Assembly: GCA_021783235.1 (NCBI GenBank)
Contig: JAJXUD010000015.1
Coordinates: 1 to 64,000 of the forward strand
Source: Myxococcales bacterium
GTDB lineage: Bacteria; Myxococcota; Myxococcia; Myxococcales; JAKAPL01
DNA length: 64,000 nucleotides
Reading direction: 5' to 3'
Shown: positions 7,384 to 17,443 of the stretch, in pieces
Layout: each line of letters opens with the position of its first letter
How positions within the stretch are numbered: the stretch's first letter is position 1
Translations under genes and position numbers: made by a program
The notes under the pieces: generated by a model
The model's database searches: none
What the model was told of the DNA's origin: nothing
The model's input: the letters and a program-made list of their open reading frames with translations, nothing else

Positions 7384-9267
7384 TTACCCCAAATCCCCCT
7401 GGGACCAAGCATCCGCGGGCGGACCAGCCGAAGGGAGGGGCGCTTCCTCATGGAGCGGAAGCGAGAGCGTGAAGCAGGTTCCCTTCCCCGGCCGCGAGGA
7501 GAAGCCGATCTCGCCCCCGTGCTCCTCGGCGATCTTCTTGCAGAGCGCGAGGCCGAGCCCCGTGCCCCCGGCCTTGCCGTGGCTGACGAACTCCTCGAAG
7601 AGCCGCCCCTGGATCTCCGGCGGGATGCCGGAGCCGGTGTCCTCGCAGCTCAGGAGCCAGCGGTCGCCCTCGCGCTCGGAGCGCAGCACGAGGCTCCCCC
7701 CGCCCGGCATCGCCTGGACCGCATTGCGCACGAGGTTGAAGACGACGCGCTTGACCTTCGCCTCGTCGCAGCGAACGTGCCCCTGCCACGAGCGGACCAG
7801 CTCGAACGAGATCGGCCGCCCGGCGAGGTCGTGGCGCAGAAACTCCTCCATCTCGTCGAGGAGCTCGGTCACCGACAGCCGACGGATGAGGAGCGCCCGC
7901 TCGCCTCGCACGAAGGCGAGCACCTCGCCCGTCATCGAGGAGACGAGATCCACCTGCCTGAGGATCGTCTCGCCCGAGCGGCGGCGCTGCTCGGGGTCGA
8001 GCTCGCGCTCGAGGAGCTGGGCGTGGCCCGAGACGATGGTCATCGGGGTCCGCAGGTCGTGCAGGAGCCCCGAGAGCATCTGGCCGACGAGCTGGAGCCG
8101 GCCGCGCCGCTCCTGCTCGGCGCGGCCGCGCGTCCGGTGGATCGCCCGCGCGGCCTGGCCCGCGACGAGCGTCGCGAGCCGCAGATCCTCCTCGTCGAAG
8201 GGGCCGCCCTTCTTGTTGAGGAGCTCGAGCGCGCCGAGCCGCGCGCCGTCCCAGGCGATCGGAACGGCGAGCGCGCTCGCGATGGGATAGCCGAGGGCCT
8301 GGGCGATGCCCGCATCGAACCTAGGGTCGCTCGCGGGGTCGTTCGTCAGGATCGACTTTCCCGACGCCGCTGCCGCGCCGACGAGGCCCCGCCCCGACGC
8401 GAGCGTCGTGCGAACGATCCGCGAGCTCTGCTCGCCGACGGCCGAGTGGAAGAAGAGATCGCCGCCGCCCTCCTCTCGGGCGAGCAGGACCGAACCCGCC
8501 TGGGCGCCCGAGAGGGCCACCGCCTTCTGGAGGATGGCGTCGAGCAACGGGTCGACGTCCCGGGCGAGCGAGACCTCCTGCTCGACCTCGTAGAGCGCGT
8601 CGATCTCTCGCAGCGCCTTCTCGAGCCGCCGCTGCGCGGCCTCGAGGGCGGCGTTCTTCTCGACGACCGCCTGGTAGAGGCGACCGTTCTCGATCGCCGC
8701 GGCGATCTGGCCCGCGAGCGCGAGGGCGAGCTCCTCGTCCTCGGCCCCGAACGAGCCGTCCCGCTTGTTCAGCGCCTGCAGGACGCCGACCGGGTCGCCG
8801 GCTCGAGAGTGCAACGGAACCGCGAGCACCGAGCGGGTTCGATAGCCGGTCGCCCGGTCGAAGCTCGGATCGAAGCGGGGGTCCGCGTAGGCGTCTTGCA
8901 CCAAGACGGGCCGACCGAGCTTCAGCGCCGCTCCGACGAGCCCCCGATCGTCGGGGATGCGGAGCAGCTCCTGCCCGGCGGAGGGCCCACCCCCGCCCTC
9001 CTCCACCCGAGGCTGGCGCGGCCCCTCCCCCAACCCTTGCGCGACCCTGGACCAGAGCTCGCGCCGCTCCGCATCGTGGACGAAGACCGTGCAGCGCTCG
9101 GCGTCGAGGAGCCGGCCGCCATGGGCCACGACGAGCCGCAAGAGCAGGTCGAGGTTCAGCGTCGATCCGAGCGCCCGGCCGATCTCGAGGATCGACGAGA
9201 GCCGCTCGGCCTCGGTGGAACCCGCCCCCTGGAGAGGGGGCGACGGAGTGCCCCGGGCCTCGGACAT
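7384..9267 (-). CDS. Double-GAF sensor histidine kinase
   Basis: Soluble histidine kinase of about 627 aa. Two GAF sensor domains lie at about 20-200 and 230-385, joined by a coiled coil (ENGRLYQAVVEKNAALEAAQ). The HisKA phosphoacceptor His is in LLHDLRTPMT (about residue 403), and the ATPase domain has an N-box (FNLVRNAVQAM), DTGSGIPPEI and GGTGLGLALCKK. No membrane helix or receiver domain. ATG at 9267 is chosen; GTG at 9276 would add three residues. It sits between a diguanylate cyclase and cpaB in the same direction, suggesting a two-component input to the Tad genes; no response regulator is nearby. Confidence 0.9.
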   Translation of the reverse strand: MSEARGTPSPPLQGAGSTEAERLSSILEIGRALGSTLNLDLLLRLVVAHGGRLLDAERCTVFVHDAERRELWSRVAQGLGEGPRQPRVEEGGGGPSAGQELLRIPDDRGLVGAALKLGRPVLVQDAYADPRFDPSFDRATGYRTRSVLAVPLHSRAGDPVGVLQALNKRDGSFGAEDEELALALAGQIAAAIENGRLYQAVVEKNAALEAAQRRLEKALREIDALYEVEQEVSLARDVDPLLDAILQKAVALSGAQAGSVLLAREEGGGDLFFHSAVGEQSSRIVRTTLASGRGLVGAAAASGKSILTNDPASDPRFDAGIAQALGYPIASALAVPIAWDGARLGALELLNKKGGPFDEEDLRLATLVAGQAARAIHRTRGRAEQERRGRLQLVGQMLSGLLHDLRTPMTIVSGHAQLLERELDPEQRRRSGETILRQVDLVSSMTGEVLAFVRGERALLIRRLSVTELLDEMEEFLRHDLAGRPISFELVRSWQGHVRCDEAKVKRVVFNLVRNAVQAMPGGGSLVLRSEREGDRWLLSCEDTGSGIPPEIQGRLFEEFVSHGKAGGTGLGLALCKKIAEEHGGEIGFSSRPGKGTCFTLSLPLHEEAPLPSAGPPADAWSQGDLG

Positions 9268-9297
9268 CGGAGCCACAGTCTAACAGACCCGCCCCCG

Positions 9298-10377
9298 TCA
9301 GCCCGCGGCCTTCTCGGGAGCGGGCGACGGTGGCTCCGAGGCCTGGCGGACGCCGTCGCGGCCGTTCTCCTTCACCCGGTACATGGCGAGGTCCGCCTGG
9401 CGCATCAGCTCGTCGCCCGTCGAGGCATCGTCCGGGAAGGTCGCGATCCCGAAGCTCGCGGTGAGCCGGACGCCGAGGCCGCGGTCCGCGAGGAAGAAGC
9501 GCTCGGAGATCGCGGTCCGCAGCCGCTCGACCGCGAGGCGCGCGTGCGCCCGGTCGGTCTCCGGGAGCAGGGCCACGAACTCGTCGCCGCCGTAGCGGAT
9601 GGGGACGTCCACGCTGCGCAAGGTCGCGCGAAGGATCTCCCCCACCTCGCGCAAGAGCGCGGAGCCGTGCTGATGGCCGTAGGTGTCGTTGACGGTCTTG
9701 AAGCGGTCGAGATCGAAGAAGAGGAGGGAGAGGGGATGGCTGAAGCGGCGAGCGCGGCCGATCTCGACCTCGAGCTGCCGGTAGAGATAGCGAGCGTTGT
9801 AGAGCCCGGTGTGATCGTCCTGGATCGCGAGCTCCTCGATGCGCCGGAAGTTGCGGGCGTTGTCGATGGCGATGGCGGCGTAGTCCGCGAAGCGCGCGAG
9901 CGTGCGAAGATCGCCGTCGGAGAAGGGCGGCCCCTCGGGACCCGAGATGACCTCGATGACGCCGAGCGTCCGCCCCTTGCATCGCAGGGGAACCGCCAGG
10001 GCCGCCCGCGTCTCGAAGGCGGCCGCCTCGTCGAAACGCGCGGCGAAGCGGGGATCGGCCCGGACGTCTGGGACGAGCAACGGCTTCCCTTCGCGCGCGG
10101 CCCAGCCCGCGATCCCCTCGCCGAGCTGCACCCTCAGCGGCTTGATCCGCTCGGCCCCCTGCCCCACGGCGATCTCGAAGCGCAGGTCGCCCGTCCGCTC
10201 GTCGACGAGCAGGAGCGACCAGTTCTCCGGCCGCAGCAGGTCGCTCACCTTCTGCATGACGGTGGCGAGCACCTCGTGCACGTCGAGCGTGCTCGTCAGC
10301 GCCTTGCCGATCTCGTTGAACGCCGCCAGCTCGTTCACCGTCCGCTCGAGCTCGCGGAGAAGCTCCTGGCCGTCCAT
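9298..10377 (-). CDS. GAF-GGDEF diguanylate cyclase
   Basis: Predicted to make cyclic di-GMP from two GTP. 359 aa: a short coiled N-terminus, GAF domain (about 22-175), then GGDEF domain (about 185-345). The active-site signature is intact (RYGGDEFVALLPETD) and an RxxD inhibitory site (RSVD) lies exactly five residues before it, so product feedback inhibition is expected. FFDLDRFKTVNDTYGH carries the metal-binding and nucleotide-binding residues. First gene of the minus-strand run that continues into the histidine kinase and Tad genes; c-di-GMP control of surface appendages would fit. ATG start; no clear Shine-Dalgarno sequence. Confidence 0.93.
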   Translation of the reverse strand: MDGQELLRELERTVNELAAFNEIGKALTSTLDVHEVLATVMQKVSDLLRPENWSLLLVDERTGDLRFEIAVGQGAERIKPLRVQLGEGIAGWAAREGKPLLVPDVRADPRFAARFDEAAAFETRAALAVPLRCKGRTLGVIEVISGPEGPPFSDGDLRTLARFADYAAIAIDNARNFRRIEELAIQDDHTGLYNARYLYRQLEVEIGRARRFSHPLSLLFFDLDRFKTVNDTYGHQHGSALLREVGEILRATLRSVDVPIRYGGDEFVALLPETDRAHARLAVERLRTAISERFFLADRGLGVRLTASFGIATFPDDASTGDELMRQADLAMYRVKENGRDGVRQASEPPSPAPEKAAG

Positions 10378-11831: not shown

Positions 11832-14099
11832 TCACTGGACCTTCACGTCCTCGCCGCCTTGCGAGGCGAGCGTCCGGTAGCTCTGGTCGACGTACTGCAC
11901 GAGGTCGACGAACGACTGCCCGTAGGCCCGCGGCTGGCCGGTCGGCCCCCCCTGCGAATCGACGTAGAAGTTCCCCGAGTCGCACTCGCGCACCCAGGGC
12001 GCGCCGCGCGGCTGGCCGTTCAAGTCCTCGGTGCAGCCGAGCTCTCCCGTCTGCGAGTTCGTGAAGCAGCAACGGCCCGACGGGAAGACGACGATCATCT
12101 TGCGCAGCTGCCCCGAGAGCATCGGACCGTCGAAGATGAGCTCGGTCCCCATCATGTCGGCCGCGGACGCCCCGTAGCCGTGGAGCATGTAGAAGACCGG
12201 GTAGTGCGCGCTCGCGTTCTCGGGCGAGTCGTATCCGGGCGGCAGCACGATGCCGAAGTCGCGGTCGACCCCGAGCGACTTCGACGGGAAGGTCTGGATC
12301 GAGGAGCGATCCGTGAAGGTGCCCGGGCTCGAGCCGGCGGGCACGTCCGGGGCGACGCCGTCCCAGCGGTGCGAGAGCCAGTAGTAGAGCGCTCCGAAGC
12401 GGTCGAGGGCCTGCGAGACGGTTCCGACGTGGTCGCCGTCGCCCTGCGCGATCTGCGACGGGGTGGCGTTCAGGTCGCCGTAAAACGTGAAGAGGTCGCG
12501 CGGGATCAGGCTCCACTCGGCGAGCGAGGCGTCGAAGCTGTCGTCGTTGAACGCCGTCCCGCTCGCGCTCGGCCACGATGAGAAGTCCGCGAACCGGGCG
12601 ACCGACGAGCCGCCGAGGAGGCCTCGCAGCAACCCGTACACCTGGGCGCCGCTCACCCCGAAGTTGAAGACGTCCCGCACGCCGCCGTCGATCAGGTAGT
12701 CGATCCGCTGGATCTGCGGGACATGGACCCCGTCGGCGCCGATGCCAGGCCAGCGGTTCTCGATGTTCGTGCGCGGGTCGACCGCGAAGTACTGCTGGTA
12801 GGCCGGCTGCACGTCGAAGGTGCCGTTCCCCTCGCCGTAGTCCCCGGTCCCAGGCACGCCGTCGAGCCCGTTGTCCTCGAACGGCTCACCCTGCTCCCAG
12901 CGCCAGTCGTTCTCGGTGCCGAAGGGGTTCTGCTGGAAGTCGTAGTCGTCGCCGTTCGGATCGGCGGTCCCCTGCGCGTAGGGCGACTTCGAGGGATCGC
13001 TGACGCAGCCCCCCTTGCCGTCCTCGAGATCGTCCGGGCAGCCGTCGGTCCCGACGTCCTGGAAGCGCTCGTGCGCGTTGACCACGACCGGCTCGCCGTA
13101 GTCGCGCTTGCCGTTGCCGTTCAGGTCGATGGCGAGCGCCACCGCCATGGGGCGGGTCGAGGGGTAGCAGGGATCGTGGGTCCCCTGTCCAGCGATGAAG
13201 AGCGGCTCGTTCGGCCCACTCTTCCCTGCCTGCGCGGCGCCGCCCTTCGACTGGCAGTAGCTCTGCGGGTAGCTGGCCGGCGAGGCGCCCGCGGGCAGCT
13301 CGCACCAGTCGATCTCGGTCGTGGGGTCGTCCTGGCAGTACCAGATCGGCCGCTGGCCGTCGCAGAAGAGGATCGCGTCGTACTGCCCCTGCGGGTTGAA
13401 CTCGGCGTTGTAGAGCGGCGAGGCCCCGCCGTGCGCCTTGCCCGGGATGACGTAGGGGTGGACGCAGAGGTCCTCGCCCCTCGCCCAGACCGAGGCGTCG
13501 ACCTGCGGCGCGAAGAAGGTGCTCTTCGGGTTGTAGGAGAGCGGGTTGCCGAAGGCCGCGGAGATGTCCTCGAAGAGGCTCATGTACGAGTCGCGGTCGA
13601 AGTTGCCGCCGTTGCTCGTGTAGCGCCAGTGGTTGAAGTCCTCGGTGTGCTCGTAGGGCGTCACCTGCGGCGGCGGCGGGTGCATGCAGCCGAGCGCCGA
13701 CGGCTGGTTCAGGATGGCGCCGGTCGGGTCCTGGGCGAGCAGCGCCTCGAGCTGCGAGAGCGTGCAGAAGCCGCCGATGTCCGCGGCCTCGATGAAGTGG
13801 AGCAGGTAGGAGAAGTCCATCGGGCCGCCCAGGGAGCCGATGGCGTCGAAGAGATCGGGGTGGCTCGTGCCGATGAACGACGAGCCCATGCCGCCCATGC
13901 TGACGCCGCCGATGGCGCGGAAGGTGTAGTGGCGCAATGTCGGCGCCGGCGGGGCCCCGGCCGGCTTCTTCGCCGTCCTCCCCCCGCAGGCGGCCAGCAG
14001 GCCGAGCGCGAGGAGCATGGAGAGCCGCTCGGTCGCGCGGCCTTGGGACGAGGCGGAGGTCGGGCCGCGGGCGGCCGCTCTGCAAGGGCGTTCAGTCAT
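11832..14099 (-). CDS. Lipoprotein alpha/beta-hydrolase (esterase), halves in swapped order, copy A
   Basis: 755 aa, probably a lipoprotein: ALGLLAACGG gives a lipobox at about 31-40. ATG at 14099 is kept because it includes Arg residues before the hydrophobic stretch; ATG at 14018 would begin the hydrophobic core directly. The fold is that of the putative-esterase family (Esterase_D/PF00756 type), but the segments are permuted: the nucleophile elbow GVSMGGMGS (Ser67) comes first, an acidic calcium-like loop DLNGNGKRDYGE lies near 325-336, a candidate catalytic His is in GDGDHVGT (about 557), and the oxyanion strand YPVFYMLHGYG (633-643) followed by YVDQSYRTL (736-744) comes last. In ordinary members YPVxYxLHG precedes the SMGG motif. 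Copy B is nearly identical. Substrate unknown; enzymatic activity is inferred. Confidence 0.8.
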   Translation of the reverse strand: MTERPCRAAARGPTSASSQGRATERLSMLLALGLLAACGGRTAKKPAGAPPAPTLRHYTFRAIGGVSMGGMGSSFIGTSHPDLFDAIGSLGGPMDFSYLLHFIEAADIGGFCTLSQLEALLAQDPTGAILNQPSALGCMHPPPPQVTPYEHTEDFNHWRYTSNGGNFDRDSYMSLFEDISAAFGNPLSYNPKSTFFAPQVDASVWARGEDLCVHPYVIPGKAHGGASPLYNAEFNPQGQYDAILFCDGQRPIWYCQDDPTTEIDWCELPAGASPASYPQSYCQSKGGAAQAGKSGPNEPLFIAGQGTHDPCYPSTRPMAVALAIDLNGNGKRDYGEPVVVNAHERFQDVGTDGCPDDLEDGKGGCVSDPSKSPYAQGTADPNGDDYDFQQNPFGTENDWRWEQGEPFEDNGLDGVPGTGDYGEGNGTFDVQPAYQQYFAVDPRTNIENRWPGIGADGVHVPQIQRIDYLIDGGVRDVFNFGVSGAQVYGLLRGLLGGSSVARFADFSSWPSASGTAFNDDSFDASLAEWSLIPRDLFTFYGDLNATPSQIAQGDGDHVGTVSQALDRFGALYYWLSHRWDGVAPDVPAGSSPGTFTDRSSIQTFPSKSLGVDRDFGIVLPPGYDSPENASAHYPVFYMLHGYGASAADMMGTELIFDGPMLSGQLRKMIVVFPSGRCCFTNSQTGELGCTEDLNGQPRGAPWVRECDSGNFYVDSQGGPTGQPRAYGQSFVDLVQYVDQSYRTLASQGGEDVKVQ

Positions 14100-14139
14100 G
14101 GCCGGGGGACTCTACCCGTCCCGGCTCCACCCTGACCAG
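11832..14139. repeat. Direct repeat, copy A (2308 bp)
   Basis: Left unit of a tandem pair whose other unit is 14410-16717; both are 2308 bp with no indels. The unit covers the whole esterase gene plus 40 bases upstream of its start. Seven substitutions cluster within about 70 bases near the gene 3' end (11881-11942) and three lie at the other end; the central 2 kb appears identical, since translations in several frames agree. Confidence 0.9.
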
Positions 14140-14163
14140 GGCCCGCGCCGCGGGCGCGCGCCA

Positions 14164-14397
14164 CTACGACGACTTGAGCTTGAGCTTCCCCTCGTCGCTC
14201 ACCTGCGCGACGAACTCCTGGCCGCAGTAGAAGCAGCGGACCTCTTCACCGTCCCCGAACGACTCGTCGTACGGGTTGTTCGCGTTGCAGTCGGGGCAGT
14301 CGAAGTCCTTGAAGCGGCGCTGACCATCCATCGAGGCGCCGGCGTCCTTCTCCTCGTCGCGAGCGAACTCCTCTTCGTCCACCATCCGGTCGGGCAT
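14164..14397 (-). CDS. Small zinc-ribbon protein
   Basis: 77 aa with an acidic N-terminus (VDEEEFARDEEKDAG) and a four-cysteine ribbon: CPDC at about 34-37 and CFYC at about 55-58, so a structural zinc site is likely. No enzymatic motif. It lies between the two esterase copies in the same direction, starting 12 bases after copy B and ending 64 bases before copy A. Its isolation inside a duplication suggests it was either part of an ancestral unit lost from the other flank or inserted between copies. Function unknown. Confidence 0.75.
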   Translation of the reverse strand: MPDRMVDEEEFARDEEKDAGASMDGQRRFKDFDCPDCNANNPYDESFGDGEEVRCFYCGQEFVAQVSDEGKLKLKSS

Positions 14398-14409
14398 CGC
14401 GCGCTCCTC

Positions 14410-16677
14410 TCACTGGACCTTCACGTCCTCGCCGCCTTGCGAGGCGAGCGTCCGGTAGTTCTGGTCGACGTACTTCATGAGCTCGAGGAAGGACTGCCCG
14501 TAGGCCCGCGGCTGGCCGGCCGGCCCCCCCTGCGAATCGACGTAGAAGTTCCCCGAGTCGCACTCGCGCACCCAGGGCGCGCCGCGCGGCTGGCCGTTCA
14601 AGTCCTCGGTGCAGCCGAGCTCTCCCGTCTGCGAGTTCGTGAAGCAGCAACGGCCCGACGGGAAGACGACGATCATCTTGCGCAGCTGCCCCGAGAGCAT
14701 CGGACCGTCGAAGATGAGCTCGGTCCCCATCATGTCGGCCGCGGACGCCCCGTAGCCGTGGAGCATGTAGAAGACCGGGTAGTGCGCGCTCGCGTTCTCG
14801 GGCGAGTCGTATCCGGGCGGCAGCACGATGCCGAAGTCGCGGTCGACCCCGAGCGACTTCGACGGGAAGGTCTGGATCGAGGAGCGATCCGTGAAGGTGC
14901 CCGGGCTCGAGCCGGCGGGCACGTCCGGGGCGACGCCGTCCCAGCGGTGCGAGAGCCAGTAGTAGAGCGCTCCGAAGCGGTCGAGGGCCTGCGAGACGGT
15001 TCCGACGTGGTCGCCGTCGCCCTGCGCGATCTGCGACGGGGTGGCGTTCAGGTCGCCGTAAAACGTGAAGAGGTCGCGCGGGATCAGGCTCCACTCGGCG
15101 AGCGAGGCGTCGAAGCTGTCGTCGTTGAACGCCGTCCCGCTCGCGCTCGGCCACGATGAGAAGTCCGCGAACCGGGCGACCGACGAGCCGCCGAGGAGGC
15201 CTCGCAGCAACCCGTACACCTGGGCGCCGCTCACCCCGAAGTTGAAGACGTCCCGCACGCCGCCGTCGATCAGGTAGTCGATCCGCTGGATCTGCGGGAC
15301 ATGGACCCCGTCGGCGCCGATGCCAGGCCAGCGGTTCTCGATGTTCGTGCGCGGGTCGACCGCGAAGTACTGCTGGTAGGCCGGCTGCACGTCGAAGGTG
15401 CCGTTCCCCTCGCCGTAGTCCCCGGTCCCAGGCACGCCGTCGAGCCCGTTGTCCTCGAACGGCTCACCCTGCTCCCAGCGCCAGTCGTTCTCGGTGCCGA
15501 AGGGGTTCTGCTGGAAGTCGTAGTCGTCGCCGTTCGGATCGGCGGTCCCCTGCGCGTAGGGCGACTTCGAGGGATCGCTGACGCAGCCCCCCTTGCCGTC
15601 CTCGAGATCGTCCGGGCAGCCGTCGGTCCCGACGTCCTGGAAGCGCTCGTGCGCGTTGACCACGACCGGCTCGCCGTAGTCGCGCTTGCCGTTGCCGTTC
15701 AGGTCGATGGCGAGCGCCACCGCCATGGGGCGGGTCGAGGGGTAGCAGGGATCGTGGGTCCCCTGTCCAGCGATGAAGAGCGGCTCGTTCGGCCCACTCT
15801 TCCCTGCCTGCGCGGCGCCGCCCTTCGACTGGCAGTAGCTCTGCGGGTAGCTGGCCGGCGAGGCGCCCGCGGGCAGCTCGCACCAGTCGATCTCGGTCGT
15901 GGGGTCGTCCTGGCAGTACCAGATCGGCCGCTGGCCGTCGCAGAAGAGGATCGCGTCGTACTGCCCCTGCGGGTTGAACTCGGCGTTGTAGAGCGGCGAG
16001 GCCCCGCCGTGCGCCTTGCCCGGGATGACGTAGGGGTGGACGCAGAGGTCCTCGCCCCTCGCCCAGACCGAGGCGTCGACCTGCGGCGCGAAGAAGGTGC
16101 TCTTCGGGTTGTAGGAGAGCGGGTTGCCGAAGGCCGCGGAGATGTCCTCGAAGAGGCTCATGTACGAGTCGCGGTCGAAGTTGCCGCCGTTGCTCGTGTA
16201 GCGCCAGTGGTTGAAGTCCTCGGTGTGCTCGTAGGGCGTCACCTGCGGCGGCGGCGGGTGCATGCAGCCGAGCGCCGACGGCTGGTTCAGGATGGCGCCG
16301 GTCGGGTCCTGGGCGAGCAGCGCCTCGAGCTGCGAGAGCGTGCAGAAGCCGCCGATGTCCGCGGCCTCGATGAAGTGGAGCAGGTAGGAGAAGTCCATCG
16401 GGCCGCCCAGGGAGCCGATGGCGTCGAAGAGATCGGGGTGGCTCGTGCCGATGAACGACGAGCCCATGCCGCCCATGCTGACGCCGCCGATGGCGCGGAA
16501 GGTGTAGTGGCGCAATGTCGGCGCCGGCGGGGCCCCGGCCGGCTTCTTCGCCGTCCTCCCCCCGCAGGCGGCCAGCAGACCGAGCGCGAGGAGCATGGAG
16601 AGCCGCTCGGTCGCGCGGCCTTGGGACGAGGCGGGGGTCGGGCCGCGGGCGGCCGCTCTGCAAGGGCGTTCAGTCAT
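14410..16677 (-). CDS. Lipoprotein alpha/beta-hydrolase (esterase), halves in swapped order, copy B
   Basis: 755 aa near-identical twin of the gene at 11832-14099, same permuted order (Ser67 elbow, His about 557, YPVFYMLHGYG at 633-643). Protein differences are one near the N-terminus (PTPASS instead of PTSASS) and a patch close to the C-terminus (QSFLELMKYVDQN versus QSFVDLVQYVDQS, and PAGQ versus PTGQ). Its start codon overlaps the end of the DUF3108 gene by 8 bases, so translation is probably coupled. The pair is likely exported and lipid-anchored; whether the patch changes specificity is unknown. ATG at 16596 is an alternative start right at the hydrophobic core. Confidence 0.8.
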   Translation of the reverse strand: MTERPCRAAARGPTPASSQGRATERLSMLLALGLLAACGGRTAKKPAGAPPAPTLRHYTFRAIGGVSMGGMGSSFIGTSHPDLFDAIGSLGGPMDFSYLLHFIEAADIGGFCTLSQLEALLAQDPTGAILNQPSALGCMHPPPPQVTPYEHTEDFNHWRYTSNGGNFDRDSYMSLFEDISAAFGNPLSYNPKSTFFAPQVDASVWARGEDLCVHPYVIPGKAHGGASPLYNAEFNPQGQYDAILFCDGQRPIWYCQDDPTTEIDWCELPAGASPASYPQSYCQSKGGAAQAGKSGPNEPLFIAGQGTHDPCYPSTRPMAVALAIDLNGNGKRDYGEPVVVNAHERFQDVGTDGCPDDLEDGKGGCVSDPSKSPYAQGTADPNGDDYDFQQNPFGTENDWRWEQGEPFEDNGLDGVPGTGDYGEGNGTFDVQPAYQQYFAVDPRTNIENRWPGIGADGVHVPQIQRIDYLIDGGVRDVFNFGVSGAQVYGLLRGLLGGSSVARFADFSSWPSASGTAFNDDSFDASLAEWSLIPRDLFTFYGDLNATPSQIAQGDGDHVGTVSQALDRFGALYYWLSHRWDGVAPDVPAGSSPGTFTDRSSIQTFPSKSLGVDRDFGIVLPPGYDSPENASAHYPVFYMLHGYGASAADMMGTELIFDGPMLSGQLRKMIVVFPSGRCCFTNSQTGELGCTEDLNGQPRGAPWVRECDSGNFYVDSQGGPAGQPRAYGQSFLELMKYVDQNYRTLASQGGEDVKVQ

Positions 16678-16717
16678 GGCCGGGGGACTCTACCCGCCCC
16701 GGCTCCACCCTGACCAG
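14410..16717. repeat. Direct repeat, copy B (2308 bp)
   Basis: Right unit of the tandem pair with 11832-14139, offset 2578 bases. On the right it runs into the end of the DUF3108 gene, so its last 40 bases are coding for that protein; in copy A the equivalent bases are non-coding. This indicates that copy B sits in the original context and copy A is the derived insertion. Confidence 0.88.
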
Positions 16718-17443
16718 ATCGGCGCGGACCGTTCCCAGCAAGAGGTCAGCGTCGAGCCGCAGCGGCACGTGGCGCGGGTCGTCGGAGAACCAGCCGTCGA
16801 GGTCGCGCCGGCCCGCGAGCTTCCCCGAGAGGACCGTCGCGAGGCGGACGTGGATCGCCGGAACCTTGCCGAGCTTCCCCTCGATCGTCTCCTTGCCGAG
16901 CACCGTCGCCACCAGGGTCCACTCGTGCTTTCCGGTGAAGATGGGCAGCTCCTCGCGGTCGCCCACCCGAAGCGGGCGCGTCCGCAGCCAGTAGATCGCC
17001 GAGCCGAGGTCCTCGGCCCCTGGCGGCAGTTCGCGGCGGAAGCGTTCGAGACCGTGCTCGTCCTCGATCTCGACCTGGGCCACCGTGGCCGCGCCACCGT
17101 CGGCGCCCCCGCGTTCGAAGGCGATCGAGAGCCGCCGCGACTTGCCTTTCTCGTGCGCGACGAGCATCGCCTGAACCCCCTGCCGGGCGGCGAAGTCCCA
17201 GTAGGTCACGAAGCGATCGCGCACGGGGTAGACCGCGTCGACCGCGCCGGCGCTGCGGGAGATCACGACGATCGGCCAGACGGCCTTTCCCCGAAGCTCC
17301 ATCGCCGCGCCGACGTCGACGCGCACCGTGCCGGCCTCGGCGCCGAAAAAGCTGAGGTCGTAGACGAGCTCCTCTCCCGGGCCGAAGGCGAGGCCGGGCG
17401 CGGCGACGGCGCAGAGACCGGCAGCGAGGAGGAGGGCATGCAC
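16670..17443 (-). CDS. DUF3108 exported protein
   Basis: 257 aa with an N-terminal signal peptide (ALLLAAGLCAVAAPGLAFG) and the DUF3108 pattern: GEELVYDLSFFGAEAG, repeated beta strands, DRFVTYWD, and near the C-terminus DLDGWFSDDPRHVPLRLD. Proteins of this family are periplasmic or outer-membrane associated beta-rich proteins of unknown biochemical role. GTG start at 17443 with GAGAGG about 7 bases upstream; it begins 10 bases after the preceding lipoprotein gene and overlaps esterase copy B by 8 bases, so these minus-strand genes form one unit. Confidence 0.88.
   Translation of the reverse strand: MHALLLAAGLCAVAAPGLAFGPGEELVYDLSFFGAEAGTVRVDVGAAMELRGKAVWPIVVISRSAGAVDAVYPVRDRFVTYWDFAARQGVQAMLVAHEKGKSRRLSIAFERGGADGGAATVAQVEIEDEHGLERFRRELPPGAEDLGSAIYWLRTRPLRVGDREELPIFTGKHEWTLVATVLGKETIEGKLGKVPAIHVRLATVLSGKLAGRRDLDGWFSDDPRHVPLRLDADLLLGTVRADLVRVEPGRVESPGHD

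What the first reader, a model, noticed from the sequence alone, without database searches (positions are those of the whole stretch)
11832..16677. Pair of esterases with swapped halves, probably circularly permuted
Seen: the motif order is signal/lipobox, SMGG nucleophile elbow (Ser67), acidic loops, His candidate (557), then YPVFYMLHGYG and YVDQSYRTL at the C-terminus, stopping just where the SMGG strand should follow. Known: in Esterase_D/S-formylglutathione-hydrolase-type folds the LHG oxyanion strand precedes the SMGG elbow. The protein's own end (GEDVKVQ) and start (TLRHYTFRAIGGVSMGG) look contiguous if joined, as a circular permutation predicts. The joined old termini would be near WLSHRW and SPGTFT. 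Inference: an enzyme made by tandem duplication and loss of outer halves, kept in two copies.
Basis: partly seen in the sequence, partly recalled or inferred. Interest (0 to 1): 0.8.

Follow-up and report, generated by a model that had tools for sequence, protein, structure and literature searches.

The report
Circularly permuted CE1-like lipoprotein esterase family
These two neighbouring genes encode an exported enzyme whose two halves are joined in the opposite order from all ordinary relatives, an ancient rearrangement kept in many bacteria of one phylum and apparently a second, independent case of a rearrangement known from plastic-degrading enzymes.

Summary
Two 755-aa ORFs (99.2% identical in the mature region) lie in direct tandem. 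Each chain starts with a lipoprotein signal, then strand β5 with the SMGG nucleophile elbow, and ends with the LHG oxyanion strand and helix αB. A 47-sequence family profile hits a canonical CE1 ferulic acid esterase (7XRT, E=2.6e-24) in swapped pieces that abut exactly at its residues 143/144. Profile-profile alignment gives two swapped halves in natural order (scores 112 and 87) and one near-full-length match (187) once rotated. The AlphaFold model is confident (pLDDT 92, pTM 0.91), with strands in the order β5-β6-β7-β8-β1-β2-β3-β4. S67, D476 and H557 are invariant in 47/47 members.

The permutation is not local. Relatives occur in 59 of 195 phylum genomes (42 of 90 genera), and every one read has this order. 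No unpermuted relative with the 370-aa insert was found. Type 2 PHA depolymerases share the same new termini, but by sequence the new family belongs with CE1, so the permutation probably arose independently. The tandem pair itself is a local duplication, unrelated to the permutation.

The parts
14410..16677 (-). Copy A: 755-aa circularly permuted CE1-like lipoprotein esterase
11832..14099 (-). Copy B: second copy, 99.2% identical in the mature protein
14410..16717 (-). Direct repeat unit A (gene plus 40 nt upstream)
11832..14139 (-). Direct repeat unit B; its 40-nt upstream part is a relic of the 3' end of the DUF3108 gene (one mismatch)
16558..16677 (-). Copy A N-terminal leader with lipobox LLAAC (Cys40 region); the exact start codon is uncertain
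   Evidence: sequence; relatives also begin with lipobox leaders
16477..16479 (-). Copy A catalytic Ser67 (SMGG elbow, strand beta5)
   Evidence: 47/47 conserved; aligned with canonical Ser
15298..16380 (-). Copy A approx. 360-aa insert (residues ~100-460) between beta6 and beta7, with EF-hand-like Asp loops (DLNGNGKRDYGEP)
   Evidence: AlphaFold secondary structure; D325 and E336 47/47; Ca binding inferred from motif
15250..15252 (-). Copy A catalytic acid Asp476 (GGVRDVF, after beta7)
   Evidence: 47/47; aligned near the canonical acid
15007..15009 (-). Copy A catalytic His557 (GDGDHVGT, after beta8)
   Evidence: 47/47
14848..14940 (-). Copy A joint of the ancestral C and N termini (residues ~580-610)
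   Evidence: hhalign of rotated profiles
14758..14760 (-). Copy A His640 of the LHGYG oxyanion strand
   Evidence: 45/47; PF00756 model start
14164..14397 (-). 77-aa zinc-ribbon-like ORF (CPDC...CFYC) between the two copies; homologues lie near the esterase in seven other loci
16670..17443 (-). DUF3108 gene directly upstream of copy A
   Evidence: Pfam E=1.3e-34; homologues in four other loci

Best explanation
Each gene encodes an exported lipoprotein serine esterase built on the CE1/Esterase (PF00756) alpha/beta-hydrolase fold, circularly permuted. The chain runs lipobox - beta5 (Ser67) - alphaC - beta6 - ~360-aa insert - beta7 (Asp476) - beta8 (His557) - alphaF - linker over the old termini - beta1-beta2-beta3 (LHG oxyanion strand) - alphaA - beta4 - alphaB - end. 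The folded chain should rebuild an ordinary CE1 active site (Ser-Asp-His with backbone oxyanion hole) and hydrolyse an ester, while the insert, with Asp-rich EF-hand-like loops and invariant cysteines, probably forms a Ca-stabilised, disulfide-braced lid. Moving the start to beta5 puts the lipid anchor next to the active-site strand. Shown: order, rotated homology, invariance of the triad, confident single-chain model, phylum-wide fixation. Inferred: catalysis, substrate (an ester outside the cytoplasm), calcium binding, and the duplication-truncation route. The tandem pair is a separate local duplication.
For: Family profile vs PDB 7XRT (E=2.6e-24): profile 515-601, 648-670 and 19-68 match chain 23-107, 120-143 and 144-193, so the C-terminus abuts the N-terminus. 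hhalign: natural order gives swapped pieces 112+73 (113+87 with the insert left out); rotation gives one match of 172-187 covering nearly all of the canonical profile. Positive control: type 2 PHA depolymerases, known to have this order, give the same signature against type 1 (94+85, then 167 rotated). AlphaFold pLDDT 92.2, pTM 0.91. Triad 47/47. Same order in every relative read. dN about half of dS or less against L005 and L006.
Against: No coordinates could be measured, so triad geometry and beta3-beta5 pairing were not checked. Foldseek matches to canonical enzymes cover only one half (~150-170 columns), and the match to the permuted 2D80/2D81 has poor rmsd (~10.5), so the structural comparison alone is weak. 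The canonical His did not align in hhalign; it is assigned by motif and order. Activity and substrate are untested.
Confidence: 0.92

Rival explanations
1. The protein descends from type 2 PHA depolymerases, which are already permuted, so the permutation is inherited and not new.
For: Same chain order and same new termini (alphaB end, beta5 start); 2D80/2D81 are the only long sequential Foldseek matches.
Against: Profile-profile score against type 2 in natural order is only 30 (probability 6-10%), against 132-187 with rotated CE1; type 2 sides with type 1 (167) and not with CE1. The type 2 model does not hit this genome at E<=0.001, and no member is listed for it at E<=1.
Confidence: 0.06
2. 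Two unrelated domains: the N-terminal part is an independent domain and the C-terminal part an incomplete esterase, each non-catalytic or completed by pairing with the neighbouring copy.
For: Single-sequence Pfam hits are partial; tandem copies could complement each other.
Against: The rotated profile aligns as one domain including Ser and acid; pTM 0.91 for one chain; single-copy genomes keep both halves in one chain.
Confidence: 0.03
3. Assembly artefact: a mis-joined contig or collapsed repeat created the swapped order.
For: Copies are identical over about 2 kb and differ only at the ends, as a resolved assembly-graph loop would; G001 has a perfect 3704-bp tandem.
Against: The same order occurs in tens of independent assemblies, including a one-contig genome (G008). 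An artefact could affect copy number or core identity, not the order.
Confidence: 0.01

Closest known systems
CE1 / Esterase family PF00756 (ferulic acid esterases BT_4077 7XRT, XynZ 1JJF, esterase D)
   Same: Clear sequence homology of both halves, SMGG elbow, LHG oxyanion strand, catalytic triad
   Different: Order of halves exchanged; ~360-aa insert between beta6 and beta7; lipoprotein anchor placed just before beta5
Extracellular PHA depolymerases, catalytic domain type 2 (NF050059; Penicillium funiculosum PHB depolymerase 2D80)
   Same: Same kind of permutation with the same new termini: lipase box first, oxyanion hole C-terminal to the triad (PMC2666664)
   Different: No recognisable close sequence relationship; different insert and size; it groups with type 1 PHA depolymerases rather than CE1
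Type 1 PHA depolymerases / Esterase_PHB PF10503
   Same: alpha/beta-hydrolase, Ser elbow matched locally
   Different: Unpermuted; only weak profile similarity

Membership tests
CE1-like / PF00756 Esterase (as a permuted member) | Profile match above the curated cut-off | tested here: met
   36 bits against cut-off 22; 47/47 members match at E<=1, best 4.5e-16
CE1-like / PF00756 Esterase (as a permuted member) | Ser-Asp-His triad and LHG oxyanion strand | tested here: met
   S67, D476, H557 47/47; H640 45/47; geometry not measured
CE1-like / PF00756 Esterase (as a permuted member) | Canonical order: LHG before the Ser elbow | tested here: not met
   Order exchanged in all members read; collinear only after rotation. 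It is therefore filed as a permuted relative of CE1, not as an ordinary member
CE1-like / PF00756 Esterase (as a permuted member) | Esterase activity | not testable with these tools
   No assay
PHA depolymerase type 2 | Permuted order, Ser first and oxyanion last | tested here: met
PHA depolymerase type 2 | Match to NF050059 (cut-off 280 bits) | tested here: not met
   No match in own genome at E<=0.001, none listed for A2 members at E<=1; hhalign score 30
PHA depolymerase type 2 | Polyester hydrolysis | not testable with these tools
   No assay

The most novel reading that the evidence does not exclude
A previously undescribed, phylum-wide family of naturally circularly permuted CE1-type esterases, arising independently of the type 2 PHA depolymerase permutation yet opened at the same loop (alphaB-beta5), which would mark that loop as a repeatable permutation site of the alpha/beta-hydrolase fold.
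Probability: 0.8. Interest if true: 0.62.

Novelty: new variant of a known kind. Interest (0 to 1): 0.56.

Why it matters
Natural circular permutation appears to be rare in the large α/β-hydrolase superfamily. A second case with the same new termini, old enough to be spread over a phylum, makes it testable whether the αB-β5 loop is a privileged opening site, and gives enzyme engineers a natural precedent. It also explains why annotation sees only fragments of an esterase here: standard profile searches split the domain.

Tried and rejected
Unpermuted relatives with the insert: a rotated query against 189 phylum genomes broke at the natural junction in the relatives with the insert, so none was found. 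Viral contigs: no relative. Plasmids: only two short matches over the LHG part. Other PF00756-like hits in the same genome (L001-L003): the two read in full (L002, L003) are ordinary hydrolases. Literature searches for a permuted CE1 or myxobacterial permuted esterase found none in the held library; most subscription journals are not held. Conserved tandem pairing was rejected: the second tandem (G001) has different boundaries.

Full report
Observation. Two ORFs of 755 codons lie at 14410-16677 (copy A) and 11832-14099 (copy B), both on the - strand, in a direct repeat spaced 2578 bp. They differ at 9 of 2268 nt: two in the first 99 nt and seven in the last 111 nt, with none in the ~2058 nt between. 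The repeat includes 40 nt upstream of the start. In copy A this is the 3' end of a DUF3108 gene; in copy B it is a relic of that end. Copy A is therefore at the ancestral place and copy B is the added one (inference). A 77-aa zinc-ribbon-like ORF lies between them, and homologues of it lie near the esterase in seven other loci.

Motifs. Pfam finds PF00756 with the C-terminal stretch 606-672 matching model 1-62 and a second stretch. NCBIfam gives feruloyl esterase positions for the C-terminal part and Ser-elbow positions of PHA depolymerase and S-formylglutathione hydrolase models for the N-terminal part.

Relatives. A search of 60 related genomes found full-length relatives in the same order, and a profile search matched in 59 of 195 genomes of the phylum, 42 of 90 genera. 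Contig lengths identify three of these genomes with GenBank MAGs labelled Proteobacteria, Myxococcales and Deltaproteobacteria, so the phylum is very probably Myxococcota (inference). The relatives read have a lipoprotein-like leader, then SMG(G/A), then the insert, then the D/G/N-H-V/A/L-G His motif, then the HG oxyanion motif, and stop a few residues after a helix of the type ELMxHIDxxYRT. Rerunning with the broader profile gives continuous matches over positions 2-676 in this order in many genomes. S67, D476 and H557 are present in 47/47 sequences, H640 in 45/47, and D325 and E336 of the insert in 47/47. Against the two nearest relatives dN is about half of dS or less, which indicates purifying selection.

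Permutation test by sequence. The family profile against PDB sequences hits the ferulic acid esterase BT_4077 (7XRT) with E=2.6e-24. Profile positions 515-601, 648-670 and 19-68 fall on chain residues 23-107, 120-143 and 144-193: the end of our protein abuts its beginning exactly in an ordinary enzyme. With hhalign against canonical PF00756 esterases from related genomes, the natural order gives two separate swapped alignments (scores 112 and 73). Rotations that rejoin the halves give one alignment of about 172. With the insert left out, the rotated profile gives one match of score 187, E=1.2e-26, in which GGVRDVF lies beside the canonical acid; the unrotated control gives 113 and 87.

Positive control and the known case. 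Type 2 PHA depolymerases are described as having the oxyanion hole C-terminal to the triad, unlike type 1 (PMC2666664). From my own knowledge, the structure 2D80 was reported as a circularly permuted α/β hydrolase. Type 2 members taken from the same phylum show this order and give the same hhalign signature against type 1: 94 and 85 in natural order, 167 rotated. The new family scores only 30 against type 2 although both are permuted, but 132-187 against CE1 after rotation. The simplest reading is two independent permutations opened in the same αB-β5 loop. The type 2 set had only three sequences, which lowers sensitivity, although the same three suffice to find type 1.

Structure. AlphaFold with 12 relatives gave pLDDT 70 and pTM 0.74; with 47 relatives, pLDDT 92.2 and pTM 0.91. 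The predicted elements run β5 (22-27 of the mature chain), αC, β6, insert, β7 (428-434), β8 (496-501), αF, β1-β2, β3 (596-600), αA, β4 (630-634), αB (687-701). That is the canonical order rotated. Foldseek matches CE1/esterase D enzymes over about 150-170 columns, one half, and the permuted 2D80/2D81 over 243-319 columns, though with poor rmsd.

Origin. A rotated query found no unpermuted protein carrying the insert in 189 phylum genomes, so no intermediate is known. Duplication followed by loss of outer halves remains a reasonable but untested route. The tandem pair is not a trace of it: each copy is already complete and permuted, single-copy genomes have the same protein, and the second tandem pair (G001) has other boundaries. 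The perfectly identical core between divergent ends suggests gene conversion or collapse of differences by the assembler.

Function. The lipobox, many invariant cysteines and the CE1 triad point to an exported, membrane-anchored serine esterase. Asp-rich loops such as DLNGNGKRDYGEP suggest calcium binding in the insert, which sits where lids usually sit in this fold. One relative (L015) lacks part of the insert, so that part is dispensable. Substrate is unknown; CE1 precedents are acetylated or feruloylated polysaccharides and small esters (established knowledge of the family). The search did not reach beyond this phylum except for viral contigs, plasmids and one narrow scan of genome contigs, so the wider distribution is open.

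Noticed in passing
14164-14397 (-) and homologues in L109-L114, L117: A small zinc-ribbon-like protein (CPDC...CFYC) is conserved near the permuted esterase in seven other loci; function unknown, possible operon partner.
   Followed up: partly
11832-16717: The two copies are identical over about 2 kb but differ at both ends, which suggests gene conversion or assembler collapse.
   Followed up: partly
L109 (G001:C5), about 5.0-12.0 kb: A perfect head-to-tail duplication of 3704 bp containing a DUF3108-like gene and the esterase: very recent, or an assembly artefact.
   Followed up: partly
L015, L023 (G014): A relative lacks most of the second part of the Asp-rich insert, showing it can be lost.
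   Followed up: no
7384-10377 (-): Neighbouring GAF-histidine kinase-like and GAF-GGDEF-like ORFs, by reading of the sequence.
   Followed up: no
L119, L120, L121: Bona fide type 2 PHA depolymerases occur in the same phylum beside many type 1-like enzymes.
   Followed up: partly
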